This document shows, in pieces, positions 9,371-64,000 of a DNA stretch of 64,000 bases. The notes under the pieces were generated by a model that was not told the DNA's origin, searched no databases, and saw only the letters and a list, made by a program, of their open reading frames with translations. This DNA comes from Lepiota brunneoincarnata. Taxonomy: Eukaryota; Basidiomycota; Agaricomycetes; Agaricales; Agaricaceae. The stretch is taken from positions 310,001 to 374,000 of the forward strand of contig JAEBUN010000032.1 of the NCBI GenBank assembly GCA_023014365.1, in the 5' to 3' direction. Within the stretch, counting starts at the first letter, position 1, and every line of letters starts with the position of its first letter. The translations under genes were made by a program, and so were the position numbers.

Positions 9371-10675
9371 TGATATGCTGATTTCATGCCTATACATGAA
9401 TTCTGTACTCTGGAATGATTCTCTAAATAGAATCATTGGCTATATCATTAAAGAACCCTATAGAGGATTGGTACTATGTCCTGTAGTAGCCAGTTCGACC
9501 AAACTGAGGATATTTGAGCCTTGGAAGTGTTCAAACCAGCTCATTATCACTAAGCTTAGTGAACCAAGCTATCAGAATACTCTCCAGAGGGATTCCAGAC
9601 TCTACATAGCCTATTGAGTATACTCCGGTCGCATCCAGGGACCTTACAAGCAGTTTTCTGATGAACTCGGATTTGTTGGAACCTACAGAATGTACATAGC
9701 AGCTGTTGCAGGTGTATTACGCCTGTAGCAAGCCCAATAATGATGACCGGACCATGGAATGGAACGTCCAACATTCAGGAGGCGACACCTGATGCCCAAA
9801 ACCCTAGACATATCAAAGACTCATAATTAATGAGTGCTTTGTGGGTCCCAGCACCTCAGCATATTGCCAGACTGAGATTAATTACAACAGATCAAGGGAT
9901 TGTCCATATGCCATACATTCCAATCATAATTGATCTGGAGGCTTAACACGCTTGTGTGGATGCAGAATAATGCAGACAAGCATGGAACATGTCTGGCTAG
10001 ATTGCCATTCATCAATCAGAGAAAAACCCATAACCCAGGGCAAGGTAGAAATGCTGCCAAACCTTCCAAAGTATTCTGCAGTACCTGTAACAATTAAGCT
10101 TATTGTTTTCTATTTCATATTTACTATCTCTTGTATGTATCTAAACAATATAAATATGGTTCGCGCTTGTTCGTGGAGAAAGAAGAGGTCTCACCCCCAC
10201 TTCCACATGCAAGTCTGCGAGCCATGATTAAGAATAGTTTCAGAGGACTAATTAGTGTGCATCATTAAGTGTGATTTCTTCAGTCGTCGACCAACCCAGA
10301 GACAGAGACAGAGAACAGAGTCCAGAGTTTAGAGTTCCAGAGTGCTAGAGACAGAGACAGAGACAGAGAACAGAGTTCAGAGACCAGAGACCAGAGACTA
10401 GAGACCCCAGCACTTTGAATTGGCAGGGATTGTCCTTTCACTGTTGCACCAGTACTGGCTAAGATAACTTCAACTGGCTGTTTGTTAACTTCTAAAAACC
10501 CTATTGTCTGGAATTTCGCTGTCAGAACACACCCCCAGAACACCCTAAAAGATGAAACTGTTCATTATCTATCTCATACTACTTGTATTAACTTAAGCTT
10601 ATCAAATTTCGACTAAGCTTAGTGAGAACAAGCCATTTATCTATATTAAAACCCATGAACGTTTCCACCTTTTCA
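9371..10675 (+). mobile_element. LTR of family A, copy A2 (probably solo)
   Basis: 1305 bp, TGATATGC...TTTTCA, opposite in orientation to A1. It has no matching flanks (GGAGA and GCAGG), so a rearrangement or a decayed duplication is likely. Its right end cuts straight into the integrase of a different gypsy element. It carries a TATAAATA box, a GAGACA microsatellite at about 10300-10400 and an 80-codon ORF at 9375-9617 shared with other copies. Many CpG sites kept in A1 and A5 are TpG or CpA here. Confidence 0.8.
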
Positions 10676-11396
10676 GCAGGTCAACCAGGAATTGGACCAA
10701 TACCTCTGGATCTTTGTCAATGAGCAACAGAATGATTGGCATGACCTCCTCCCCCTGGCAGAATTTCAGCACAACAACCACATCCACACTTCCACCCAAC
10801 ACTCACCATTTGTCCTAGACACTGGCCAAAACCCAAGAATGGGGTTTGAACCCTGCCAACAACCATCTTGGCTGGAAACAGTCAACAAGTTCAAATCCCA
10901 GATGGAATTGGCATTGGAGGAGGCAAGATTGGCACTTGCGAAGTCCAAAGATGATATGGCAAGGTACTACAACCAATGGCAAACCCCAACTCCAGAGTTC
11001 AAGCCCAGAGACAAGGTTCTCCTGGATGTGTCAGACATACAAACCACACAACCATCCAAGAAACTCTCACATTGCTGGTTAGGACCCTATGCAATTGACA
11101 AACAGGTCAGCCCCAATGCATACCGACTGAAGCTACCAAAATCCATAAGACACCTCCACCTGGTCTTCAATGTGGTAGAGCTCACACTCACTCCCACAGA
11201 CCCCATTCCCCAATGCCAGCCCAAACCACTGCCAGCACCTATCATCATTGAGGATGAAGAAGAGTGGGAAGTTGAGGAAATCCTGGATAGCTGCATCCAC
11301 CAGAGGAGACTCCAGTTCCTAGTGAAATGGAAGGACTTTGGGATTGAAGAAAACTCCTGGGAATTGGCCGAGGACATCCATGCCCCAACTGCATAA
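10676..11396 (+). pseudogene. Gypsy (chromovirus) integrase C-terminus with chromodomain
   Basis: The frame enters from the LTR at 10676 and reads QVNQELDQYLWIFVNEQQN, the end of the integrase core. It continues through the GPY/F-like region (CWLGPYAIDKQVSPNAYRL) and ends in a chromodomain (WEVEEILDSC, then LQFLVKWKDFGIEENSWE) at about residues 185-234 of the 234-codon segment. In chromoviruses this module targets insertion to heterochromatin. The rest of pol is missing because LTR A2 abuts it, so the element is dead. A purine-rich tract and the 3' LTR follow in the expected order. Confidence 0.9.
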
Positions 11397-15322: not shown

Positions 15323-17295
15323 TAACAATGGATGGCAGGTTTCTGTGCTGTGATAACAGTGATGAGTTTGATATTGAAGAGAAGAACAAACTGAGGCCAA
15401 ATAAAGTAAGTCAATTTGCTTATGATCATTATGAGAAGGAGGAAGTCTAACCACTGCAGCAACAACACTGGATGGAAGAGTTTGTCAACATGCCAATGGT
15501 CTAATGGCAGCACTCCTTGCCCACAAAGCATTGCCTGGCAATGGCAAGCGTTGCAACTGTGCTGAGGAGCAACAGGCAATTTGGTGATGCCAAGATTGTT
15601 TTGGAGCCAAGGTGCTTTGCTGAATGTGCATGAGGCACTCCCATTTTGGTGTTCCTCTGCACAGGCTGGAGTGGTGGACTGGGCGGTTCTTTTCCTTGGC
15701 TAGTATGTGGGAGGTTAGAACATATATGATGGTACCACACAATGATGGCAGAGGAGACCTGTGTCCTATACTGAAAAATCACATAGACATGCTTGAGGTG
15801 GGTCAGGAGCTGAAGGATCATGCTGAGCAAGAAACATTGCATGTGGGAACAGCAAGCAGAAACACTGTCCTGTCCAACAGTTGGGCTCCGGCTCATAATG
15901 CCAAGCCAGATGGTAATACTTTTCCACTCAGCAATACCCAGGCTGATCCTGAAATCAAGGAAGGGTTATGCAGCTTAGATGAAGGTGGTGTTGCTGATGA
16001 AGCCACAATGGGAATGGATGAAATGCAAATGGGGGAGTTTTCCAGAAAGCTGCAGGACCCAGCTCATAGTGAACAGGACTTTGTCCACCAAACTGATGCA
16101 CTTAGCAATCAATATGTGCAGCTTATACACACAAATGGTATACACCATATTGCCTTGGTGACTTGTGCCTGCTGGAGGAGAGAGGACGCTATTGCCGATT
16201 TGATGTATTGCCATCTAGTGCTGGCCACATTCACACAATACCACACTGTGTTCACAGCAGATGTTCTTGATGATTGTCGACTTGAGAATTTGGAATGCAA
16301 GGCCTCAGCATATCAATACTTCCAGAAGCTTTACCAGCTTACTGCCCCCATGACACCTAGCAAAGTGCCAAACTTGTATCAGGAACTGCTGCAAATGGCA
16401 CAGTTGTGGCACTGGTTAAAAAAGAGAAAGTGGGCAGGCTATGGGCAGAGTTCATCAAAAGGAAGTCCAACAAGCGCTGGATTGCTTGTAAACTTTTGTC
16501 CAGCATGCCCCCAGCCTGGTATTAATCTGCCTCCCAATTGGAAAGATGATTCAAACAGGTTAGTCAAGATTTGTCTATTTTGTCCTGCATATCATATTGA
16601 TTGCAGTCTGGAGGTGGGCTTACCAGTGTTTCTTTGTTGCTGACAGCAATTTCAAGGCAGACCACATTTGGCAAAACCATGGCACTTCCAATATTTGGCT
16701 TTCTGAAGGAGGCAGCATGTTTGCCACACATGCACAGTATCACAGCTTCCTGAGGGATGCAATTGAGATGTCCACAGTACATTCAGCAGCAGTACTTCCA
16801 TATCCTCAAAAACATTTATTCGTGATCTGAATACAGAAGGCACCATGTGAGAACCACTTTGTGCTATCAAACTTGCAATGGCTGGTTCCAAAGCCTGTGA
16901 TATTACCAGCATAGTAGCCATAGCTTGTGCTTGGCATGGATGCTTTGCACCAAATGCAATTGCTGACTTGTTCAAGGGGGAGCAGCAAAAGAACATAGAC
17001 TGGGTCTTTTTGCAATCTCTGGAAACAACCCACCTTGATCCGGAGCAAGGTGCCATATTGATTTATGACATTGCCTGCCAATATTTGGTCCATCTCCAGA
17101 AAAGAATCAGCCATCATCTCCCAAATGATCTGGTCATTGACTGAGCCATTGGTCTCTTTCATGTGCATGGCCATAGACAGGAGTGCTTTTTCTGGTATGT
17201 GCTGTCCTTCATCCGTGGCAGTGGTGTAGTGGCCAGTGAAATTCTAGAATCTTTGTGGTCATCCTTAAATTCCATTTCACCAACTGTTTGTACAG
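15094..17295 (+). pseudogene. KDZ (Kyakuja-Dileera-Zisupton) transposase with CxC2 domain, decayed
   Basis: In order: an N-terminal region ending in a run of ten Asp codons (GAT repeat, about 15295-15325); a CxC2-type cysteine cluster split by frameshifts (about 15500-15640, then MCMRHSHFGVPLHRLEWWTG); a CPACPQPGINLPPNW segment near 16500; and the core with ACAWHGCFAPNAIADLFKGE, LIYDIACQYLVHL and, in another frame, HVHGHRQECFFWY with a trailing SGVVASEILESLW. These are the conserved blocks of KDZ transposases in mushrooms. Several frameshifts and stops break the frame. Family A LTR copy A3 cuts its 3' end at 17295. Confidence 0.85.
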
Positions 17296-38212: not shown

Positions 38213-41200
38213 GATAGCACCTCATAAAGATCATACAATAATTGTATTTGATTTAATTGTGCAGTTGCTGTGACAAAGGTGTCAATGGATTTGTAAGGGT
38301 GGCGTCAACTTCTGATTGATGGAAGTAGAGTATTGCAATGATGCTCCATAGGAAATGCCCAATACGTCCAGACAGGACCTGCCACCTGGATACCCCATGC
38401 AATATGAAGAAGGGCATCGAGAGTCAAAGGACAAGTGGAGAGTTGAGCAGGGTCATTTTCATAGTACAGCCTACAATAATTTGAGCATAAGAGTGCAATG
38501 TAGAAGGTAGGTGCTCACTTTTCATACATCTGAACCCAGGACTTGAAACCCTCATCAATCTGTTTCAATTCCTCTTCCGTGATCTCAAGCAACAAGCAGA
38601 GCTTCAAAAGTTTGACAAGCTGCATGAAATGGTCATAATACTTCATGTTTGTGAACCTGCCATGAAGCACAACCAGAGCAATATATAGCATCCAGTTGGA
38701 GTACATCTCGGCAGTCATTTGTGACTGTTTAGTTGCAATGTTGGGTACTGAAGCCCTGAAAGCTGCTGGGATTGTTGCACCATATGCTGCCATGGCAGCA
38801 CCAATTTCATTCCAGATTTGTTTTGCAATGACATAGCCTTTGTCTTGGTGATCTGGGTCCTTGAATTTGCCAGTCCAGAACAGAATGAGGTTAGGAATTA
38901 AATTTTCCCAGATAAGGTGCATGAAGTCAAATGGGAATGAAGATGGGAATGAGAGCAAGGATATGGTGCTGAGGATTGGTATCCCTTTGATGCCATACTG
39001 TTTGGCAAGTGCATCATGTACAGAGTTGCTGGGGGCCATATCCATGGCATGAGCTTGCCCTAAAAACTCCTTGTGAGTACAAATGGGGAGATCATATGGG
39101 TTGTACTGGGGAGGATTTGCTTCGGGAACCTTATCTCACCAAAGAAGGACATAGTAAGTACGAGAGGGTGAGAGAACCCTTTTGATGTTGCAGATGTGGC
39201 ATGGGCTGATACCATTCTGCCCTTTCATGTGTGTTATCAGGGTCATGGCTGGAATATCGCCAAATGCTATGATGAGATAGGCACAAAGCAAGAACAATGA
39301 TTGACTGATTGCGTTGAAAGCTTTAACACCCATTTCGAGTTGGATGAGTTCTTGAGCAAGTGGCCAGCAGAATGAATCCCAATCCCAAGGTTTTTTCGGA
39401 CCTGGGACTGTACCAGCATGAATGTGGTACTGTTTCTGGAAACACATTTTGGGGAGAAGATTGTAATTGACAAGGAGGATGGGCCAGCACATCTTGTTAC
39501 GGTGTTTGAATGGGGCAAAGCCATCTGTTGAAAGACCAAGGGCAATGTTGTGCTTATCAGAGAAAAAAGACATAGGATGGCTTGCATCAGGGATGAGAGT
39601 ACTGAGCAAGGACTGATAGTGGGAACCATCGAAAATGTCCTTGGTGATGCTGGGCTCATGAATGTACATTCCCCGATAGCACATCTTTTTCGTGTGTGTG
39701 GGGTTCATTGACATAGCCTGTAGGTGAGGGATGAGGGGAAGGTACTCGAATGTCTTGCGTAGCTTTCCATTAGCTGCATATTGCAATTCCTTGCAGTTGG
39801 GGCATCCAGTGAGGTCTTCATATGGCCCCACAAAACAAATGCAACTATTTATACAACAGCTGTATCATATGGGCTGAAATCCAGACAGTGATTGAATGCA
39901 CTTTTTGGTTGTTTTCAGGCTGACCTGACTGCTGCCTGGAAAAGCTTTATGGAGTTGACTGAAAGTGCACTCAGTTATGTGGTCCTCCACCTTGAGGGTA
40001 TAACTGCGAAGTAGATTAAGGTCTGAATCTCCCAAGGCATTCGCATCTAAAGTATTGTTAGCAAGGCAGGTGATTCATGGGGCGAGGACAAACCTATGGC
40101 TGTGGATGCCGCTTCACGTGCAAAGTTTTCATCAAGCATGTCCAAAGAGTGAATGTGCAAATCATTATCTTCACCATCCTTGCTGTTCTCATTGCTCTCA
40201 CAGGCTTCATTGCTCTCATAGGCTTCATTTCTCTTGCAGTCTTCAGGCTGGGAAGCTTCTGCAGCACCACCACTGGATCCCTTGTCTTCACTGTCATTAC
40301 CATTCCTACCAGCAGGCCTGGCATCTTGTGGGTGGCTATTCCCCCATTGCTGCTCCATCACATGCCTGGTTCTATCCATAAGCCTATCTGACCAATGCGT
40401 AGATGGCAATGCCTTGAGAGAATTATTGTCATCATTACATTCTCAGGTAGGGAGGGATTCTGTGAGGTTGGTATTGGCTTGAAAGGTTACAGAAATCTTG
40501 GGGGGTTGGTATGCCTTGGGTTGAGCTGGTTTAGTCCACTTACGGCTGCTGTCCTTGTCAGAACTAAATTGCAACCGCTGAAAAGGTAGAAACGTTCGTA
40601 TGTTTTAATATGGATAGTGGGCTTGTTTTCACTAAGCTTAGCCGAAATTCGATAAGCTTAAGCTAATACAAGTGGAATGAGATAGATAATGAACAGTTTC
40701 GTCTTTTAGGGTGTTCTGGGGGTGCGTTCTGACAGCGAAATTCAAGAGAGTAGTGTTTTAGAGGTTAACGAACAGCCGTTGAAGTTATCTTAGCCGTACG
40801 GTGCAACAATGAAAGGACAATCCCTGTCAATTCAAAGCACGGGGTCTCTAGTCTCTGGTCTCTGGTCTCTGTCTCTGTCTCTGTCTCTAGCACTCTGGAA
40901 CTCTAAACTCTGAACTCTGGTCTCTGTCTCTGTCTCTGGGTTGGTCGACGACCGAAGAATTCACACTTAACGACGCACACTAAATAGCCCTCTGAAACCG
41001 TTCTTGATCACGGCTCGCAGACTTGCGTGTGGAAGCGGGGGTGAGACCTCTTGCTTCTCCACGAACAAGTGCGACCGTATTTATATTGTTTAGATACATA
41101 CGAGAGATAGTAAATATGAAATAGAAAACAATAAGCTTAATTGTTACAGGCACTGTAGAACATTTTGGAAGGTTCGGCAGCATTTCTACCTTGCCCTGGG

Positions 41201-41613: not shown

Positions 41614-43219
41614 CAGTGACCCACAAAACTGTTCCAATGTTTTGTACTTTTGACTTAAAGTAGTAATAGCTCAGTAAATAAAATAGCCATATTTGTGAAT
41701 ATATTTATAAACATAGCCAAATATGTCATATCTGACTCTGCAAAGTTGCGTCATGTAATACTTCCAAATTAGGCAATTATGAATTTTGTAATCATTTTAA
41801 GTCATTGGAACGGTTTTGTCAATGACATATTATACTAGGCTATCCTATTATTTCTAGTACTTAGAGTAGCCCCCCCTGGCTTTGAGTACAGCTGCTACTC
41901 TTCTAGGCATACTTTCAATTAACTTCTGACACTCAGAAGCTGGAATAGCATCCCACTCCTTTTCTACCCTCTGCCACAACTCCTCCATACCCTTGGGAGG
42001 AGATTCATACTCTCCCAACTTTCTCTTCACATATTCCCATAAGTGTTCAATGGGATTGAGGTCAGGTGACTGTGCTGGCCAGGTTAGGAGCCTAAAATGA
42101 TTTTTTTGAAACCATTCTTTGGCCAGTGTACTCTTGTGTTTGGGGTCATTATCTTGCTGAAAGATAATATCTCGGGGTTTAAGCTTGTACCACCGGAGAC
42201 TCTTCTTCAAATCTTCCTCCAAAATTTGCACAAACAACTCTGCATCCATCCTTCCATCAATCCTCACTGCATAGCCTGGGCCATCCCACAGCATACAGCC
42301 CCAAACCATCACTGATCCTCCTCCATACTTCAGAGTTCCCTTGACCAATCTTTCACTAAGCCCCTCTCCCTTCTTTTTCCATCCCCACTTCCTCCCATCT
42401 GACCCCAAACAATTAATTTTGGTCTCATCAGACCATACAACCAGCTTCCAGTCCTCCATAGTCCAATGCTGGTGTGTCAGAGCAAAATCCAGCCTAGCCC
42501 TCCTATGCTTGTCAGAGAGTAAAGGCTTTTTTTGCTTGACTACAGCCTTCATTCCTGCCTGTTTGAGATGCCTTGCTACAGTCTGTGAAGAGACTGATGT
42601 CCCAATGATGGGAGCAAGAGATTTGGCTATATCTACAGCAGTTTCAGCCTTGCCAGCAGAGATAAGATGGATAGCATGCCGAATATTAGTGGTAGAGAGT
42701 TTTGAAGGACGTCCTCCAAGTGATTTAGTAAGGCTGGAACAATTTTTAGAGGCTAGCCTGGATATGGTACTGCGCCCAACACCAGTAATTGCCTCAATTT
42801 TAGTATAGGAATGATGAGAATTTAGCAAAGAGAGGATGGTTTGCTTTAGAGTAGAAGATAATGGCTTCATGGTAGGTAGGGGGGTTGAGAATGATGGGAC
42901 ATGGCTGTCAGCACATCTATTTATATGTCAAAGACACGTGGTCACATGATCTTGTTGATTCACAATCAACGGAGTCATGTGATTGCTTGGATTAGTATTA
43001 AAAATTACTATTGACAAAACCGTTCCAATGACTTAAAATGATTACAAAATTCATAATTGCCTCATTTAGAAGTATTACATAACGCGACTTTGCAGGGTCA
43101 GATATGACATATTTGGCTATATTTATAAATATATTCACAAATTTAGCTATTTTATTTACTGAGCTATTACTACTTTAAGTCAAAAGTACAAAACATTGGA
43201 ACGGTTTTGTGGGTCACTG
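41614..43219 (-). mobile_element. Tc1/mariner element D3, structurally complete
   Basis: 1606 bp with TA duplicated at 41612-41613 and 43220-43221. The terminal inverted repeats are about 215 bp long (41614 to about 41828 and 43005-43219), each with an outer and an inner copy of a CAAAACnGTTCCAATG motif about 190 bp apart, an IR/DR arrangement. Inside is one intact transposase gene. It sits in LTR A5. It looks potentially mobile. Confidence 0.95.
41854..42870 (-). CDS. Tc1 transposase, DD34E, intact
   Basis: 338 codons, no stop or frameshift. Residues 1-110 form the paired helix-turn-helix DNA-binding region (YTKIEAITGVGRSTISRLA, then GGRPSKL as a hook-like linker). The catalytic triad is D148 (VVWSDETKIN), D240 (IIFQQDNDPKH) and E275 (SPDLNPIEHLW), with exactly 34 residues between D240 and E275, as in the Tc1 family. 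A glycine-rich YGGGSVMVWG lies near residue 182. The enzyme would cut at the TIR ends and insert at TA. The copy is closely matched by fragment D1. Length is normal for the family (about 340). Confidence 0.96.
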   Translation of the reverse strand: MKPLSSTLKQTILSLLNSHHSYTKIEAITGVGRSTISRLASKNCSSLTKSLGGRPSKLSTTNIRHAIHLISAGKAETAVDIAKSLAPIIGTSVSSQTVARHLKQAGMKAVVKQKKPLLSDKHRRARLDFALTHQHWTMEDWKLVVWSDETKINCLGSDGRKWGWKKKGEGLSERLVKGTLKYGGGSVMVWGCMLWDGPGYAVRIDGRMDAELFVQILEEDLKKSLRWYKLKPRDIIFQQDNDPKHKSTLAKEWFQKNHFRLLTWPAQSPDLNPIEHLWEYVKRKLGEYESPPKGMEELWQRVEKEWDAIPASECQKLIESMPRRVAAVLKARGGYSKY

Positions 43220-56463: not shown

Positions 56464-58492
56464 CTATTCATCAGAGTCATCAAACCATTTGATGCAACTG
56501 GACGTCCTCACCGCAAGGGAGTCGATAGATTGATCTGTACAGATAGATATACCTACAACCCCCGACTCGAGCTGCATGGAATTTACCCGCACGATATTAT
56601 CGTTATGTGAGTCACGGCGATTTAGTCTGGGTGTATGCCGCGTTGAGGAGGGTATTTTTCCCACGTGGAGCTTTGTAAACGACTCACGTCGCCAATAACG
56701 TGGTGATATGAACTGGATATGAGGGAACCATTGACCTTCATCTTCGAAAGAGAGTTTGCGGGTGACCGACAGACCTTTGCTTAGAACCATATGGAAGGGA
56801 GTCCATACGAGGTTCTGCGGCATGCCGATGAAATGGAAGTCTTATGAATGAGAGGTAAATCACCCGGCGATGATGGATGTACACACGAGAACCATAATGA
56901 GTATTTGGATGGTGCTGCACAGGATATTCACTCAGCCATCCCAAGAGATGACAGGTGGAGGAAAACATGGTGCTCACGCTGTTACAATTCCACGATTGAC
57001 GACGTAAATCACTAATTTGTCCAGAAGGGTGTCGGTCCTGTGCAGCAAGAATCAATGGGACCAAACAAATCGGTGGAGGAATATAAGGACGCCTACTCTT
57101 TGATACCCCCCTTGTAGAAGCGGAAATAATAACACAGGGAAATTGTAATTGAAATATCACAGAGCGCAGCCAAACCAAATTCAAACCCGAAAAGAACCTA
57201 GGACAGACATCGGTGAGGTGAACAGCAGGAACACGTTGGTGGGGATTGTGATTCACCCACACCCTTGAAACTCCCAGGTCGGCGAAGTAAATATGAACGA
57301 AAGTACTCTGCACTATCACTTTCATGATGGTTCAATACTACCAGAAGCTACGGTGGCTATAAGGAGCACATACCGAGTCCGAGCGCTGGGAATTATTGTG
57401 ATTAGCTAAGGTTATTGCAGAACTGGTTTCGGGACGAAGACTTAACGTACCCAAGGTAATGGTTGCAAGGATGTACTGAGATAGGATCCGTTCAGAACTC
57501 CTTTGCCTTAAGTCATTCTACTTACTATGAACCCAGCGACCATTAAATTCCTGTTCGAGACTGACGAAGTATTGAAATGAAATTCAGGACACTCCTTAAA
57601 TAAATGAGGACTTGCGCTTACCATTCCAAACGCAATAACCGAAGAAGCTACAGGACAACACTGTAAGCCGCAAGTATATTCTTGTCCACAAGTTTTCGCA
57701 CCATTGCACGATGAAGGTCACCAAGAACTACGACGCCAGTGACCATGAGTATCAGCGAATCAATTGTGTGAGGAGTACTCTGTATCTCACCGCGCACAGG
57801 CCTTCAACCTGTTCTCGCATGACCATCAGTGGACATTCTACGGTCAAATATATGTTAGTACATACGATAAATCCCCTAGAATCCGAGGCATACCATTAGC
57901 AAGTTGTATGTACCCGACTGAATGGACGTACTTATCAATGATTGCCAGTGCTGAGGAATCACCATAGTGCGTCACAAGGTACCAGTATACCCCTTGAGCC
58001 ATGCACCCAGTGGCGATGGTATCCTTAAAGCAATTTAATTAAAATGCATTACTCTCACCAATCACTCGGGCGTACATAACCAAGCAAACCTATATACGGT
58101 TCACGAATCACATCTCAGATATAAGCGGCACAAGAAGAGACATTGAGCTCACGGTTATCTTCCGAATTATGTGGTCATGAGGGAATCTTCTGTAGTAGTT
58201 GTACATCTGTACGAGCTGCTCACGCGCATCGTGAGGCAGATTACTGGCAGAAACATCGTACATCAACTCACATTCACTCCGTATAGGCTATTGGGGTCAT
58301 AATATAAGTCGGGTCGTCACGGTCAGCTTTTGTGCATAATGCCCATTGTTTCTTACCATGTTGCGAGAATAAGGCCAATAAACAACATACCATAGCTAGA
58401 ATCGAGCGCAGCCATAGCGATTGTGTAAGATGGGATTGGATAAATGTTGGATGGGTGGTGCTGCTTGTGCACTTATATGCATTCTTACCCAT
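56464..58492 (-). CDS. DUF6534-type integral membrane protein, several introns
   Basis: Blocks of the mushroom DUF6534 family appear in order on the minus strand. LYGVN (to 58272) joins, across a 56-bp intron, exon 58215-58153 (VQMYNYYRRFPHDHIIRKIT). After an intron comes DTIATGCMAQGVYWYLVTHY (from 58023). Later come GLAALCDISITISLCYYFRF (about 57190-57130), a spliced TDTLLDKLVIYVVNRGIVTA (about 57030), TIQILIMVLVCTSIIAG and a C-terminal exon ending at 56464. Family members have about seven membrane helices with a conserved cytosolic end, and their function is unknown. The exact start and some joins are uncertain. It stands alone between repeats and the LamB gene, on the opposite strand. Confidence 0.65.
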
Positions 58493-58499
58493 GTAGGGA

Positions 58500-59350
58500 G
58501 GGGAGCAAATTTGGCATGTCGTGCCGTCGGCACATCAATGATCCATCGATGATTCGTCACAAAATGCAGTTCCGTTTTTTTTTCTAGAGCAAGAAAAGAA
58601 TCAGAACAACGAGAAGTTTGTTGGATAAATCAAGTGATACCGAATGTATTTTTGTAAGTAAAATGATTTGTCTGACGAATAAAAGGACTGTGCATGGGTG
58701 ATATTTCTTGCATTAAGCTGCACAATGTCTACGTGTACGATAGGTCTCCTTCAATCAGTCAGGACTTTGCTGCCAGAAGATAGAGACTAGCATTACCATT
58801 ATAATGTGACCTGAATTGGTGCTGCAGCTCCCACGTTATTGACCTGCGCCCGGATGGGCTCCTCTTGCACGAGGCCTGGCTGTTGCTCGGGGGTTGATGC
58901 CATTGGAGCTGAAGGGAAGTTGATCACCAGAGCGCTCTTGTCGAAGTGTGCCCTCCACTTTCATCATGAATGGTCTCCTCCCGGATCTGGGTATCGATCC
59001 AAAGAATCACGGATCACTGCTGAAATCTGTGCAGAACCACCTCTTGATAGGATCCAAGTTATTACTGGATGATGTGGAGTGTGTCATTTGCTTGGCGTAT
59101 AGCAGTGAGTGACCTCGGTAGCCATTGGTCGATCGCCAAGCTGACTATTCTGACAATTGGAATTTGTGACATTCAAGGTCGGACCAGTCGTATATACATA
59201 CTGCATCTCTCCCCTAAGTTCTAACGAGACGGCCAATCGCGCGCAACGAAAGCTATTATTTCTATTTGGGGTTGTTTGCATTTATTACATATATGACGTA
59301 TTTTTGATTCCCCTATTCTCTCACCTCACGCTCATCTCTAAGCTCAGGAT
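58500..59350. other. Spacer upstream of the LamB gene, possible minus-strand exon
   Basis: On the minus strand, about 58965-58810 reads HFDKSALVINFPSAPMASTP and, after a few more residues, VNNVGAAAPIQVTL to a stop, preceded by an acceptor-like AG. This could be the last exon of an unknown gene. The plus side from about 59100 to 59350 is likely promoter for the LamB gene, with a TATATACATA at about 59190. Confidence 0.35.
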
Positions 59351-60616
59351 ATGCAACCACTCAAGGCAACTCTGAACTGTGATATGGGGGAGGTACGCTC
59401 TTCACCGTTCATCCTCCCTGATCCATGCGCTAATTCCAGATGGGTTCGTCATTGGGGCTAGGGTTACAGTCTCTATCGAATTGTGCATCTTCTCCACCCT
59501 CCAGCTTTCCAGTCTCCGTTCAAACGCTTTGCTAGGCAGATGACGAGGAGCTCATGAAAACGATCCACCTCGCAAATGTAGCTTGTGGATTCCATGCTTC
59601 GTAAGCGGCTTTTCACAACAAATAGGAACGGACAACCCAAGTTACGAAGGGACTTCGATATCATGAACACGACTGTGTCATTTGCGAAAGCCAATGGAGT
59701 CAAAGTCGGTGCACATCCTTCCTTACCTGATCGACAAGGATTCGGAAGACGAGAGATGAAAATAAGTCCTGTACGTTTCTCGTTCTACGCCATTGCCGCT
59801 TTTCAAACTCTCGCGACCAGGACGAATTGTTCAACTGCTTTACATATCAAGTTGGAGCTCTCTCCGGGTTCCTCAATGTGCACGGTATGAAGTTGCATCA
59901 TATCAAACCGCATGGTGCAGTGTATGGGCAAATGGCGAGGGATCTGGGATTAGCAAAGGCAGGTGCGCGTGTGTGCAAGGCTTTTGGTGGTGCTGGTGGG
60001 AATGGGCTAGAGGAGGGGGTGGCGTTTGTTGGGTTGGCGGGAACCATGCATCAGGTTGCTGCAAAGGAGTTGGGAGTACGGTTCATTCCTGGTGAGTTTT
60101 CCCTTTTTCCTCCCTCTTCGTAGGGCTCTGCTCGTGGGCGTGTAGCTGACGATGTTACGGAAGAGTGGTTCGCGGATTTGGAGTACGACCATGAGGGGAA
60201 GTTATTGATCACCAAGTGGGTATTTTCTATACGTGACTGAACCTTTTTGAATCTGGACATATAGGAAACACGATCCCGTCCCGCGGGAGGTTGTTGTTGA
60301 GCGGGTCAGCACCTTGTTCTACTTCCTATGCAAGTGGCGGTTTTCCCCTGACTTGATATAGGTCAATCGATTGCTCAAGGAACGGCTGGTCACCACTATC
60401 GTCCCAGAACATTACTTACCCCTCGGTGGAGCGGACGTGGACGAGGTGACGATTTGTGTGCATTCCGACACTCCGGTGCGTTCGTTTCCCCCGTATCCCT
60501 CTCTTAGTCCATTACCTTGCTGAGTCTGAGTTTCGTTTTCGCAGGGTGCTGTGGCTATCGCCCAACTTGTAAAAAAACTCGTTGATGAACATAACCGAAA
60601 ATCTGGACAGAATTGA
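59351..60616 (+). CDS. LamB/YcsF family protein (PxpA-like), 5-oxoprolinase subunit A homologue
   Basis: At least eight short exons: 59351-59392, 59540-59600, 59650-59770, 59821-60091, 60146-60215, 60265-60304, 60362-60475 and 60545-60616, about 265 residues (bacterial PxpA about 250). Family motifs are LNCDMGE at the start, [65 protein letters not shown] and, near the end, [16 protein letters not shown]. In bacteria PxpA works with PxpB/PxpC to open 5-oxoproline with ATP. The segment between exon 1 and the DDEEL exon (59393-59539) must supply one more base in frame; I found no standard small exon, only GFVIG in another frame. The next gene, 222 bp on, encodes the likely partners. Confidence 0.92.
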
Positions 60617-60837
60617 AATACAAGTGGACAAGGACTCAAAGCAGGCTTATGGTTCTCACGAAAGCGGTCAGGGGAGGAACTTGTTTTGTATAAAGAAGCT
60701 ACACGGAACGATATATGATCATACCCCTACCTCTATTTTCTGTCGTTCTCCATGTAGGGGTTTCTTTTCGCACGTTTTCTTTATCTCAGGAGCTCAAGCT
60801 GCCATTATCGCTCACACAAACTGCCTCCAACAACAAT

Positions 60838-63800
60838 ATGGCGGGCGAGGGCCACACAAAACACACACTCCTCGTCGCCAATCGCGGCGAAATCGCCGTC
60901 CGAATCATCCACACGGCAAGGAAACTCGGCATACGCACCGTGGGTGTGTACACGCCTGCCGACGCACTCGCGCCACACGTTACCCTCGCAGACATTTCTG
61001 TGCCTCTACCCTTCCCAACCACCACCACCACCACTCCAGAAACACATTCAACGAGCAGCTCCGGTTCGAATGTCACTGATGCGAGTGCAGCAACGACAAC
61101 GGAAGGGAGAGCATATCTCGATTCAAGTGCGCTCCTTGCAATATGTCGATCTCAGCGTGTGACGCTTTTACACCCCGGATACGGATTCCTCTCTGAAAAT
61201 GCATCTTTTGCGCGAGAGGTTATTGATTCGGGTGTGACGTGGCTTGGGCCCTCTCCAGAGAGTATTATGCTCATGGGAATGAAGCACGGGGCGAGGCGGG
61301 TGGTGCGGGAGGTACGCACTAATTGTGCCGGTGATCCCAGTAATAGTAGGGTGGAGCTTGATGTGGTGCCGGGCTCGGAAGGGTTGGTAAGAGATGTAGA
61401 TGAGGCGGTGGATGTAGTTGAGAAGGTGACGGGGTTGCCTGTTGTGTTGAAACCGAGTGCGGGTGGGGGTGGACTTGGGATGATTGTTTGTGACAACTTG
61501 GAGGAGATGAGGACGAAGTTTATGGGGGCGAGAGAGAGAGCTAAGGTGCGTGGTGTTTCTTCTTTTCTTTTTAGCTGGTTGGCTCCGTGGCTTATTGCTT
61601 GACTGTGTAGAGTTTGTTTGGGGATGGTGGGATATTTATTGAGAAGTACGTTCCGAAGGCTAGGCATGTTGAAATTCAGGTATAGTCGTTATTGTTTCTT
61701 TTTGCTTTCGTGTTTTCTTATTGATGTTTCATAGGTGTTTGGGGACGGCAAAGGAAATGTGGTACATATGAACGAAAGAGAGTGTAGTGCGCAACGTCGA
61801 CATCAGAAAATCGTCGAGGAGAGCCCTAGTCCTTTTCTCGAAGCCCATCCTGGTCTGTGGTATGACATTTATAACAACTCAAGATCTAATCCAGGTCATG
61901 CAGGTCTCAGGGAGAAAATGTGCGACGCAGCCCTTGCCTTATGTCGCTCGATCAAGTACGAGTCCGCGGGTGCGTGCAACACCAGGATGTGAACTGCTAT
62001 CTATACTCATTGTCGCAAAGGAACGGTGGAATTTTTAGTGGACGATGAAACTGGCGCATTTTACTTCTTGGAGATGAATACCAGGATCCAAGTTGAACAT
62101 CCCGTCACTGAAGTGGTCCACGATGGCCTCGACCTCGTTGAGTTAATGATCAAGCACGGTATAGCGAAGCGGGATGGCACATGTTCTGATGTCGACATGG
62201 AACAAGCGACATACAACATGCTCAGGAAAACAGCGAAGGAAGAAGGGCGGGGGTATGCCATTGAGGGTAGAATCTATGCGGAGAACCCTGCTGAGGGATT
62301 TTTCCCTTCTCCTGGGTTATTGCAGCACGTGGGATTGGCTCAGGAGCATCTGTGGTTGAGAATTGATGGTTGGGTAAATTGTTTCTCTTATTGAGCTTTG
62401 GACGGACGTTCATACGCTTGAATAGATCTCAACGGGAATGCATATCACGCCTCACTTCGATCCGTTGCTCTGCAAGATTATAGTGCACGGAGGAACGCGC
62501 CAGGAAGCGATGTCTCGATTTTTACAGGCCCTTGAGGAATGCAAGATCCTCGGTCCACCGAATAACGTTGAGTATTTGAAAGCCGTCGCCACGAGCCCGA
62601 CGTTCAGGGAGGGGAAAGTCACCACGGGGTTCTTGGATCGTTTTCAATATACTCCACGGTACGCAATATTGCAGTCCTGTAGCACTGAGCCAACTGAAAA
62701 TGTGACAGAGCCATGAAAGTACTCTTGTCGGGTATTGAAATGACGATTCAAGACCTCCCAGGACGTATGATCGGGAAAGGGATACCTCGGAGCGGAGCAA
62801 TGGATCCAGTGGCGTTTGCTGTAGGGAATATCTTGGTTGGAAATGATGAAACAACAGAAGGCGTAGAGATCATCGTTGCTCCCGGCGTGCCTAGTTGCTT
62901 CCAGTTCTTTTATTCCGCTGTGGTTGCAATTACAGGGAAGCAGGTTGAAGTGAAGGTTGATGGAAACAATGTGGAGACGTGGGCTCTTGTGATCGTACCT
63001 GCTGGGAAAAAGCTAGAGCTTCGGGTGCGGGGGGGTGAAGAGAGACCTGGTGGCTTGAGGGTGTATTTGTCGGTCCGTGGTGGTTTCCCTCAAGTACCGC
63101 AATATCTTGGTTCCAAGTCGACCTCTATGGGCTTAGGCGGTTATCAGGTATTATTATTATATCCGCGATTTTCGAACGATAAATGTTGACCCGTTTGTTT
63201 GCTGTGTGGTAGGGAAGATCGCTAATGCCTGGCGATTCACTCGAGCTTGGACATTGCGAGCCGAACGAGAGCGAATTGGCCTTCATGTTGCCTCGGGAAA
63301 TAGTACCCCAATACCCGAAGAACTGGGTTGTGTATGTCTTACCAGGCCCCCAAGATGATGAAGAGTTCGTGACGAAGGAAGGGATCGCAAAGTTTTACGG
63401 GTCCCAATGGTCCATCAGTCCATCAAGCAACCGAATGGGGATTCGGCTCGAGTCTCCTGAGAAAATTGAATGGGGAAGAGATAGCGGTGGTGAAGGCGGA
63501 GCTCACCCAAGCAACATTCTTGACAATGGATACGCTTTCGGATCTATTAACGTTAATGGAGACACGCCGGTTATATTGACGAGCGAAGGACCTGACATGG
63601 GGGGTTACCTGTGCTTATGCACCGTGGCTTCGGCGGAATTGTGAGTCAATGAAGCTCTTGGTCTTCTATTTATTTTCACAAGTTCCCAAGGTGGAAACTG
63701 GGGCAATTGGGCCCAGGGAGCAGCGTACAGTTCCGACGCATCTCCTATGACGCGGCCCGTAAAATCACTAATCACAATCGAACCTGGATGACCAGCGTCT

Positions 63801-64000
63801 CAGCAATGGTTGCTGGAGCAAAGGAGCACTTCAGTGGCAGACTTTGTGATGAAGATCTAGGAGACCAACAGTATGGACCAATGTTGTATCAGAAACCCGA
63901 GGGACCGGGCTTCGTCCTCAGACAGGTGCATACCTATAGCTTTTCTGTTAGTCACTCACAAAGCGCAATGCAGGCGGGTGATTCTGCGATACTTGCTGAG
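60838..64000 (+). CDS. Fused biotin carboxylase - KipA (PxpC-like) - KipI (PxpB-like) protein, partial
   Basis: Exons: 60838-61545, 61611-61679, 61735-61852, 61904-61969, 62021-62373, 62426-62658, 62709-63147, 63213-63640, 63691-63925, 63974 to edge. All phases fit; 892 residues are visible. Residues 1-515 are the biotin carboxylase: [34 protein letters not shown], the ATP-grasp loop [36 protein letters not shown] and [17 protein letters not shown]. Then comes the KipA/AHS2 domain ([59 protein letters not shown]), then the start of KipI/AHS1 ([15 protein letters not shown]). Order and wording match urea carboxylase without an N-terminal amidase. A C-terminal biotinyl domain would be off the edge. 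A Thr/Ser-rich insert lies at about residues 62-90. The neighbouring LamB gene argues for lactam or 5-oxoproline hydrolysis rather than urea use. Confidence 0.93.

What the first reader, a model, noticed from the sequence alone, without database searches (positions are those of the whole stretch)
59351..64000. LamB/PxpA gene beside a fused biotin carboxylase-PxpC-PxpB gene in a mushroom
Seen: a spliced LamB/YcsF gene, then in the same direction a gene with biotin carboxylase, KipA and the start of KipI in one chain. Known: bacterial PxpA+PxpB+PxpC is an ATP-dependent 5-oxoprolinase without biotin; urea carboxylase has BC-KipA-KipI-BCCP but no LamB partner. Inferred: the pair is a biotin- and ATP-dependent amide or lactam hydrolase, possibly acting on 5-oxoproline or another cyclic amide. 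The substrate is unknown, and a plain urea carboxylase remains possible.
Basis: partly seen in the sequence, partly recalled or inferred. Interest (0 to 1): 0.85.

Follow-up and report, generated by a model that had tools for sequence, protein, structure and literature searches.

The report
Mushroom biotin-dependent lactam-opening gene pair
Mushrooms carry side by side a gene usually labelled "urea carboxylase" and a LamB gene, and the evidence suggests that the two proteins together open ring-shaped amides such as 2-pyrrolidinone instead of digesting urea.

Summary
A UC-LamB cluster is already in print for Trichoderma.

It is unlikely to be a plain urea carboxylase. The genome has urease, no AH_C (allophanate hydrolase) match and no other CT_A_B gene. 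The protein is below NCBI's urea-carboxylase cut-off (1142.7 vs 1303.85). In a CT tree, 11 fungal sequences fall outside 26 bacterial urea carboxylases plus yeast Dur1,2 (UFboot 100). Of 98 distinct bacterial loci with fused CT halves, 79 have allophanate hydrolase nearby, none LamB.

The mushroom LamB groups (UFboot 100) with LamBs mostly of bacterial LamB/BCCP/BC/KipI/KipA clusters, whose KipI has the urea-carboxylase catalytic lysine; PxpB from mostly biotin-free loci has arginine.

Best reading: the carboxylase N-carboxylates a lactam and LamB opens the ring. The substrate is unproven; 2-pyrrolidinone is favoured. It is a new variant of a known kind.

The parts
59351..60616 (+). LamB/YcsF gene; exons 59351-59392, 59462-59482, 59536-59600, 59650-59770, 59821-60091, 60164-60215, 60265-60304, 60362-60475, 60545-60616; 265 aa
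   Evidence: spliced by homology, all introns GT-AG; Pfam PF03746 234.6 bits on the slightly longer first model; relatives aligned
60838..64000 (+). first part of the fused biotin-dependent carboxylase gene (19 exons, continues to 65711 on the host contig; 1,289 aa)
   Evidence: spliced; aligned to five mushroom relatives; Pfam
60838..62641 (+). biotin carboxylase part (residues 1-510), six exons
   Evidence: PF00289, PF02786, PF02785; coordinates worked out from the exon table
62713..63796 (+). CT_A_B (KipA/PxpC-like) carboxyltransferase half, residues about 518-840
   Evidence: PF02626 260.9 bits; exon table
63902..64000 (+). start of CT_C_D (KipI/PxpB-like) carboxyltransferase half; the rest, with catalytic-type Lys1054 and the biotinyl EAMKTE motif (Lys1250), lies beyond the window
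   Evidence: PF02682 109.4 bits

Best explanation
The two genes encode one two-protein, biotin- and ATP-dependent lactam (cyclic amide) hydrolase. Proposed steps: (1) the BC domain uses ATP and bicarbonate to carboxylate biotin on the C-terminal BCCP (inferred from domains); (2) the BCCP carries the carboxyl group to the KipA-KipI carboxyltransferase, where Lys1054, aligned with the essential base of yeast urea carboxylase, helps to move it onto the ring nitrogen of a lactam (residue conservation shown, reaction inferred by analogy with urea to allophanate); (3) LamB hydrolyses the N-carboxylated, activated ring bond, taking the place that allophanate hydrolase has in urea degradation; (4) the resulting carbamate loses CO2 and gives the amino acid. 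The likeliest substrate is 2-pyrrolidinone (giving GABA) or a close relative. The partner difference (LamB instead of allophanate hydrolase) and the phylogeny are shown; the substrate, the N-carboxylation and the physical partnership are inferred.
For: Complete gene pair, same strand, 221 bases apart. UC and LamB are also reported in one segment in Trichoderma. Host genome: no AH_C match, no allophanate hydrolase over cut-off, urease present, this is the only CT_A_B locus found. LamB groups with LamBs mostly of bacterial biotin clusters, UFboot 100. Catalytic Lys in 11 of 11 fungal, 26 of 26 bacterial fused, the yeast and 17 of 17 Lys-type split proteins, Arg in 26 of 26 others (role of the Lys from passages of PMC5770610). 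BC gene in the fetched stretch of 16 of 17 Lys-type loci and 3 of 26 Arg-type loci. Fungal carboxylases lie outside the sampled urea-carboxylase clade, UFboot 100, and lack its Asp insertion ('GLGDVYLGAP' type) near the active lysine, reading 'G-FYLACPFL', closer to LamB-linked enzymes. lamB of A. nidulans is a lactam-utilization gene.
Against: No biochemical or expression data. In 10 of 60 species the two genes carry different contig lengths. The carboxyltransferase halves are closer to three fused urea carboxylases (KipA 38-44%, KipI 36-42%) than to split LamB-linked subunits (31-33%, 28-30%); the BC part does not discriminate (38-40% against 38-40%). Strope 2011 places fungal short urea carboxylases with the broad bacterial UC2 group and with green-algal ones, of which three of four have an amidase gene nearby, so the fungal clade may not be purely LamB-linked in origin. 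In their Table 2, 2 of 9 fungi with the short form also have a separate amidase and 3 have urea amidolyase. Whether A. nidulans lamA is this carboxylase was not tested.
Confidence: 0.58

Rival explanations
1. The carboxylase is an ordinary urea carboxylase (urea to allophanate), and LamB next door is incidental or serves as an unusual allophanate hydrolase.
For: Same domain order; 762.6 bits to yeast urea carboxylase 3va7; catalytic Lys conserved; sources name many relatives urea carboxylase; one of eight fungal proteins tested (P0161, 1315.7) just passes TIGR02712; Strope 2011 groups fungal with algal urea carboxylases.
Against: No AH_C and no allophanate hydrolase over cut-off in the genome, while urease is present; below the equivalog cut-off in 7 of 8 fungal proteins, against 7 of 7 bacterial controls above it (no eukaryotic urea carboxylase was available as a control); outside the sampled bacterial/Dur1,2 clade; LamB linkage recurs.
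Confidence: 0.13
2. The pair is a biotin-dependent 5-oxoprolinase (5-oxoproline to glutamate), a eukaryotic counterpart of PxpABC.
For: LamB homology to PxpA (NF003814 subfamily, 235.5 vs cut-off 226); KipA/KipI halves homologous to PxpC/PxpB; bacterial clusters with biotin parts are often annotated 5-oxoprolinase.
Against: The genome has hydantoinase-B genes of the eukaryotic oxoprolinase type; the mushroom LamB is not in the part of the LamB tree that holds the biotin-free loci; its best PxpA equivalog score (198.6) is lower than those of three PxpA controls (373.5, 288.2, 411.2). The cut-offs themselves do not decide: two of those three controls fail them too.
Confidence: 0.18
3. The two proteins form a lactam hydrolase in which the substrate is activated by carboxyphosphate or phosphate, as assumed for PxpBC, and the biotin domain is regulatory or vestigial.
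For: PxpB and PxpC are assumed to phosphorylate 5-oxoproline (PMC13274462 passage).
Against: BC and BCCP regions are kept in the six mushroom proteins aligned and the carboxyltransferase Lys in 11 of 11 fungal proteins, whereas Arg-type PxpB occurs mostly without BC (23 of 26).
Confidence: 0.07

Closest known systems
Bacterial LamB-BCCP-BC-KipI-KipA clusters (e.g. Thioclava, Methylobacterium, Aureimonas plasmids; annotated PxpA or LamB/YcsF plus acetyl-CoA carboxylase parts)
   Same: Same five modules; LamB in one clade with the mushroom LamB (UFboot 100); catalytic-type Lys in KipI
   Different: Five separate genes, not one fused polypeptide; their CT halves are more distant (31-33% for KipA) than those of fused urea carboxylases (38-44%); substrate unknown
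Urea carboxylase (TIGR02712; bacterial uca, UC part of yeast Dur1,2)
   Same: Fused BC-CT_A_B-CT_C_D-BCCP order, biotin, catalytic Lys; the fused proteins, fungal ones included, form one clade with UFboot 100
   Different: Partner is LamB, not allophanate hydrolase; outside the sampled bacterial/Dur1,2 clade; below the family cut-off; lacks the Asp insertion near the catalytic Lys
Prokaryotic 5-oxoprolinase PxpABC
   Same: LamB plus KipI plus KipA components
   Different: Mostly biotin-free, Arg in place of Lys, different LamB clade
Aspergillus nidulans lam locus (lamA, lamB; 2-pyrrolidinone use, AmdR-regulated; details beyond lamB recalled)
   Same: LamB homologue by name; A. nidulans also has a 1,241-aa short urea carboxylase without an amidase gene (PMC3073912 sections 5 and 6)
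   Different: Not compared sequence by sequence here; that lamA is this carboxylase is a guess
UC-related gene segment in Trichoderma (PMC8675399)
   Same: Urea carboxylase and LamB genes in one segment (passage)
   Different: There with NADPH dehydrogenase, MFS and transcription factor genes, and discussed only as a possible urea cluster

Membership tests
Urea carboxylase | BC-CT_A_B-CT_C_D-BCCP architecture in one chain | tested here: met
   the BCCP by its EAMKTE motif
Urea carboxylase | NCBIfam TIGR02712 equivalog cut-off 1303.85 bits | tested here: not met
   1142.7; 7 of 8 fungal proteins below it, one at 1315.7; 7 of 7 bacterial controls at 1760 or more
Urea carboxylase | in the clade of bacterial urea carboxylases and Dur1,2 | tested here: not met
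   26 bacterial (19 with allophanate hydrolase in the fetched stretch) plus K. lactis form a clade without the 11 fungal proteins, UFboot 100; algal sequences not sampled
Urea carboxylase | allophanate hydrolase partner in the genome | tested here: not met
   AH_C 0 matches; TIGR02713 8 matches, none over cut-off, best 97.3 of 511.05; six-frame search exon by exon, so sensitivity is limited
Urea carboxylase | carboxyltransferase Lys (KlUA K1605) and biotin Lys | tested here: met
   EAMKTE
Urea carboxylase | carboxylates urea | not testable with these tools
   no assay
Prokaryotic 5-oxoprolinase PxpABC | PxpA/PxpB/PxpC equivalog cut-offs | tested here: inconclusive
   PxpA models 198.6/392, 175.7/337, 152.2/378; PxpC 140.7/500; PxpB 49.4/145.55: none passed, only the subfamily model NF003814 (235.5/226). 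But of three PxpA controls only L158 passes a PxpA equivalog model
Prokaryotic 5-oxoprolinase PxpABC | no biotin parts, Arg at the CT position | tested here: not met
   BC and BCCP fused; Lys
LamB-linked biotin carboxyltransferase clusters | LamB of the same clade | tested here: met
   11 fungal plus 15 bacterial LamBs, UFboot 100
LamB-linked biotin carboxyltransferase clusters | BC, BCCP, Lys-type KipI and KipA present beside LamB | tested here: met
LamB-linked biotin carboxyltransferase clusters | separate genes; CT halves in the split clade | tested here: not met
   one fused protein, in a clade with fused urea carboxylases
Eukaryotic ATP-dependent 5-oxoprolinase (hydantoinase type) | Hydantoinase_A/B domains | tested here: not met
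   Pfam scan shows none in either protein; such genes lie elsewhere, on C9 and C79
A. nidulans lam locus | orthology of both genes to lamA and lamB | not tested

The most novel reading that the evidence does not exclude
The fungal 'urea carboxylases' without an amidase partner are N-carboxylases of lactams that work with LamB: a route to ring opening through N-carboxylation instead of phosphorylation. Read with the tree, LamB partnership is the older state and true urea carboxylase arose when such an enzyme changed its partner to allophanate hydrolase; mushrooms keep the fused, LamB-partnered form.
Probability: 0.35. Interest if true: 0.75.

Novelty: new variant of a known kind. Interest (0 to 1): 0.57.

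Why it matters
Many mushroom proteins of this family are named urea carboxylase or allophanate hydrolase subunit 2 by their sources. In Strope 2011, 4 of the 9 fungi of Table 2 with the short form have neither amidase nor urea amidolyase, and all 9 have urease, so for those the label leaves the enzyme without a pathway. A LamB-partnered lactam hydrolase would give that orphan a function, correct annotations, suggest a molecular basis for the old fungal lactam-utilization genetics, and offer an origin for urea carboxylase. It is directly testable with two proteins, ATP, bicarbonate and a panel of lactams.

Tried and rejected
Rejected: plain Dur1,2-type urea amidolyase (no amidase part, outside that clade). 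Rejected: chance neighbours. Rejected as the whole story: a simple fusion of the bacterial five-gene cluster of the Thioclava kind, because the CT halves group with fused urea carboxylases. Weakened, not rejected: 5-oxoproline as substrate. I first took the failed PxpA equivalog cut-offs as evidence against it; the control run showed that two of three PxpA controls fail them as well, so I raised that rival from 0.15 to 0.18 and lowered the best reading from 0.60 to 0.58.

Led nowhere: the megablast against plasmids gave only short matches, 1% of the query in each row listed. Papers on A. nidulans lamA were not held, and a search for lamA with urea carboxylase and Aspergillus gave 0 papers. The mycobacterial paper opened after said nothing on LamB. 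Of 10 window ORFs scanned with Pfam, 4 had a match, all of transposon type. The third protein search, the structure predictions, the fold searches and the RNA tools were not used.

Rows dropped before counts: the rows without a species name were left out (21 of 120 LamB rows, 6 of 120 carboxylase rows); names and contig lengths were typed by hand. In one search three of 46 loci with LamB but no KipI in the fetched stretch (L166, L172, L178) fall out of the Lys/Arg count. Of the 49 places listed I fetched the surroundings of 34. For the tree, 23 of the 80 loci plus 3 plasmid ones were used. One locus is in both neighbour sets (L240 is L091) and is counted once in the totals of 98.
Full report
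What is there. The window lies on a 514,782-base contig (G000:C28:310001-374000) of a 55.6-Mb genome. The nearest relatives of both proteins are from Macrolepiota, Leucocoprinus and Agaricus, so the host is probably an agaric mushroom. A LamB/YcsF gene runs from 59351 to 60616 in nine exons. After 221 bases a second gene on the same strand begins at 60838 and ends at 65711 in window numbering, in 19 exons. I read the part beyond 64000 from the host contig. Its 1,289-aa product has biotin carboxylase, CT_A_B (KipA/PxpC) and CT_C_D (KipI/PxpB) domains and a C-terminal EAMKTE biotinyl motif. The exon structure was checked against five mushroom relatives.

A broken second copy. At least 5.3 kb of this stretch is duplicated on the same contig at C28:255001-260305, with 95.4% identity to window 57489-62807 (the fetched piece starts inside the match, so it may reach further). 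That copy has lost splice sites in both genes and is cut inside CT_A_B, where other sequence begins. The whole-genome CT_A_B search finds only the window's locus, so one intact set remains.

Conservation of the pair. Where both names show locus tags of one assembly (14 species by my reading), 8 pairs have consecutive tags; 3 (Serpula, Jaapia, Hydnomerulius) have non-consecutive tags but equal contig length; 3 (Sphaerobolus, Ganoderma sinense, Termitomyces) lie on different contigs. Linkage is therefore common but not universal. A Trichoderma paper reports the same two genes in one multigene segment and says that whether they form a urea utilization cluster is not known (PMC8675399, one passage read). 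The association thus spans Ascomycota and Basidiomycota and is in print, without a lactam reading in that passage.

Is it a urea carboxylase? Four tests say not simply. First, the host genome: no AH_C match, 8 allophanate-hydrolase-model matches but none over the cut-off (best 97.3 against 511.05), and urease present. Second, the TIGR02712 equivalog cut-off of 1303.85 bits: this protein has 1142.7; 7 of 8 fungal proteins fall below it and one (P0161, 1315.7) passes; 7 of 7 bacterial controls score 1760 to 1963. I had no eukaryotic urea carboxylase of full length as a control. Third, neighbours: of 80 bacterial loci whose KipA and KipI halves match in one run (75 of them in open frames of 1,100 aa or more), 63 have allophanate hydrolase within the stretch held and none has LamB (some are short contigs). 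In a second set of 19 fused loci the numbers are 17 and 0. One locus is in both sets, so in all 79 of 98 have allophanate hydrolase and 0 of 98 LamB. Fourth, the tree: on 81 taxa and 577 columns (KipA plus KipI halves), 26 bacterial fused enzymes (19 of them with allophanate hydrolase in the stretch held) and K. lactis form a clade with UFboot 100 that excludes the 11 fungal proteins.

Against this stands Strope et al. 2011 (PMC3073912; abstract, sections 5, 6 and 9 and search passages read). They place the fungal short form with the broad bacterial group UC2 and, at 100% bootstrap, with green-algal urea carboxylases, of which three of four have an amidase gene nearby. I did not check how their tree was rooted and had no algal sequence, so whether the fungi changed partner or kept an older one stays open. 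In their Table 2, 9 fungi have the short form: 4 (A. nidulans, A. fumigatus, A. terreus, Cryptococcus neoformans) have no amidase or urea amidolyase, which fits an enzyme that is not in a urea pathway; 2 also have a separate amidase on another scaffold and 3 have urea amidolyase, which does not help either way.

What LamB keeps company with in bacteria. The best plasmid matches of the mushroom LamB (45-49%) were Thioclava, Methylobacterium and Aureimonas genes, and the one locus of each that I opened is the cluster LamB, BCCP, BC, KipI, KipA. A search of 190 genomes of the class of G001 gave two score groups: 11 hits with 203.9 bits or more and the rest at 161.4 or less. I fetched the surroundings of 39 LamB loci in all (34 of the 49 places and 5) and joined 7 plasmid loci. 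Of these 46, 43 had KipI and KipA in the stretch. KipI falls into two kinds: a lysine kind (17 loci, BC gene in the stretch of 16; the exception, L170, lies on a 4.7-kb contig and has BCCP) and an arginine kind (26 loci, BC in 3). The lysine aligns with KlUA K1605, described as most likely the essential general base of urea carboxylase (PMC5770610 passages); it is present in 11 of 11 fungal, 26 of 26 bacterial fused, K. lactis and 17 of 17 lysine-kind proteins, while 26 of 26 others have arginine. In the LamB tree (58 taxa) the 11 fungal LamBs and 15 bacterial ones form one split with UFboot 100; 13 of those 15 come from stretches with biotin genes and a lysine KipI, and two (L166, L172) have no such genes in the stretch fetched. 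Four lysine-kind biotin clusters (L173, L181, L183, L185) and L116 have LamBs outside that split, so the match between LamB clade and biotin cluster is strong but not perfect.

A stepwise series. Rooted on the arginine kind, the carboxyltransferase tree reads: split lysine kind with LamB; then L165, a split LamB-BC-KipI-KipA-BCCP cluster with a urea-carboxylase-like lysine motif; then the fungal fused proteins with LamB; then fused urea carboxylases. A second locus with an L165-like KipI was found among 398 genomes (G429, 49% identity, 330 bits); it has the lysine and LamB about 5.6 kb away. Near the lysine, all 27 urea-carboxylase-clade sequences have an Asp insertion (GLGDVYLGAP type); the 11 fungal, the 17 lysine-kind and the 26 arginine-kind ones lack it. 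All 11 fungal and all 17 lysine-kind sequences have Phe next to that place, where the 27 have Val. The simplest reading is that LamB partnership is old and allophanate-hydrolase partnership is derived, but rooting, long branches, mushroom-only fungal sampling and the algal result above limit this.

How it probably works. BC and ATP charge biotin; BCCP carries the carboxyl group to the KipA-KipI site; the lysine helps transfer to the ring nitrogen; LamB then cleaves the activated ring bond, as allophanate hydrolase does for N-carboxyurea. That PxpA is probably a metal-dependent protein with lactamase activity, and that PxpB and PxpC are assumed to activate 5-oxoproline by phosphorylation, is taken from passages in PMC8453981 and PMC13274462. 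For the substrate, lamB of A. nidulans is called a lactam (e.g. 2-pyrrolidinone) utilization gene (PMC3412718 passage); the original paper was not held, and the two-gene lamA/lamB organisation is recalled. 5-oxoproline is less likely, as hydantoinase-B genes of the eukaryotic oxoprolinase type are present (C9 and C79) and the mushroom LamB groups away from the biotin-free loci. The failed PxpA equivalog cut-offs do not count for much, since two of three PxpA controls fail them too. Domains, residue conservation, partner linkage and trees are shown; substrate, N-carboxylation and complex formation are inferred.

Novelty. Searches of the held library for urea carboxylase, LamB, lactam or 5-oxoprolinase terms gave, among the papers I opened, the Trichoderma passage and no lactam interpretation of it. 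Most subscription papers are not held, so this does not show absence from print. I rate it a new variant of a known kind: known modules, with a fused urea-carboxylase-type enzyme partnered by LamB instead of allophanate hydrolase, a pairing found in 0 of the 98 bacterial loci examined.

Noticed in passing
host contig C28:255001-260305 (L008:1-5305), matching window 57489-62807: A 95.4% identical duplicate of the locus that is decayed: splice sites lost in both genes, carboxylase cut off inside CT_A_B.
   Followed up: partly
L117, L119, L159: Three bacterial clusters have LamB, KipI, KipA and biotin genes (BC and BCCP) but an arginine-kind KipI; L119 and L159 have two BCCP-like genes. What the biotin parts do there is unexplained.
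   Followed up: no
PDB 9yx5 (listing only): Allophanate hydrolase subunits 1 and 2 are listed in the same entry as a biotin-dependent acyl-CoA carboxylase alpha3 subunit, which suggests that KipI-KipA may work with a shared biotin carboxylase in mycobacteria (organism recalled, not listed).
   Followed up: no
beyond the window, L007:7470-9720: A multicopper-oxidase (laccase)-like gene lies downstream (LHCHIDWHLEAG motif read by eye); in Leucoagaricus (P0125) a predicted protein joins Cu-oxidase and urea-carboxylase domains, probably a gene-prediction fusion of these neighbours.
   Followed up: no
window 10659-11393, 15624-16640, 39139-39864, 41857-42927: Transposon-type domains (Tf2-1 SH3/chromo, KDZ-associated CxC2, Transposase_21, Tc3/DDE_3) left of the pair; part of the sequence right of the duplicate's breakpoint (L008:7812-9110) recurs in several window places at 80-93% identity.
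   Followed up: no
own genome C79:96043-97880: A second hydantoinase-B gene, with weaker scores than the one on C9, so a second ATP-dependent lactamase or oxoprolinase may exist.
   Followed up: no
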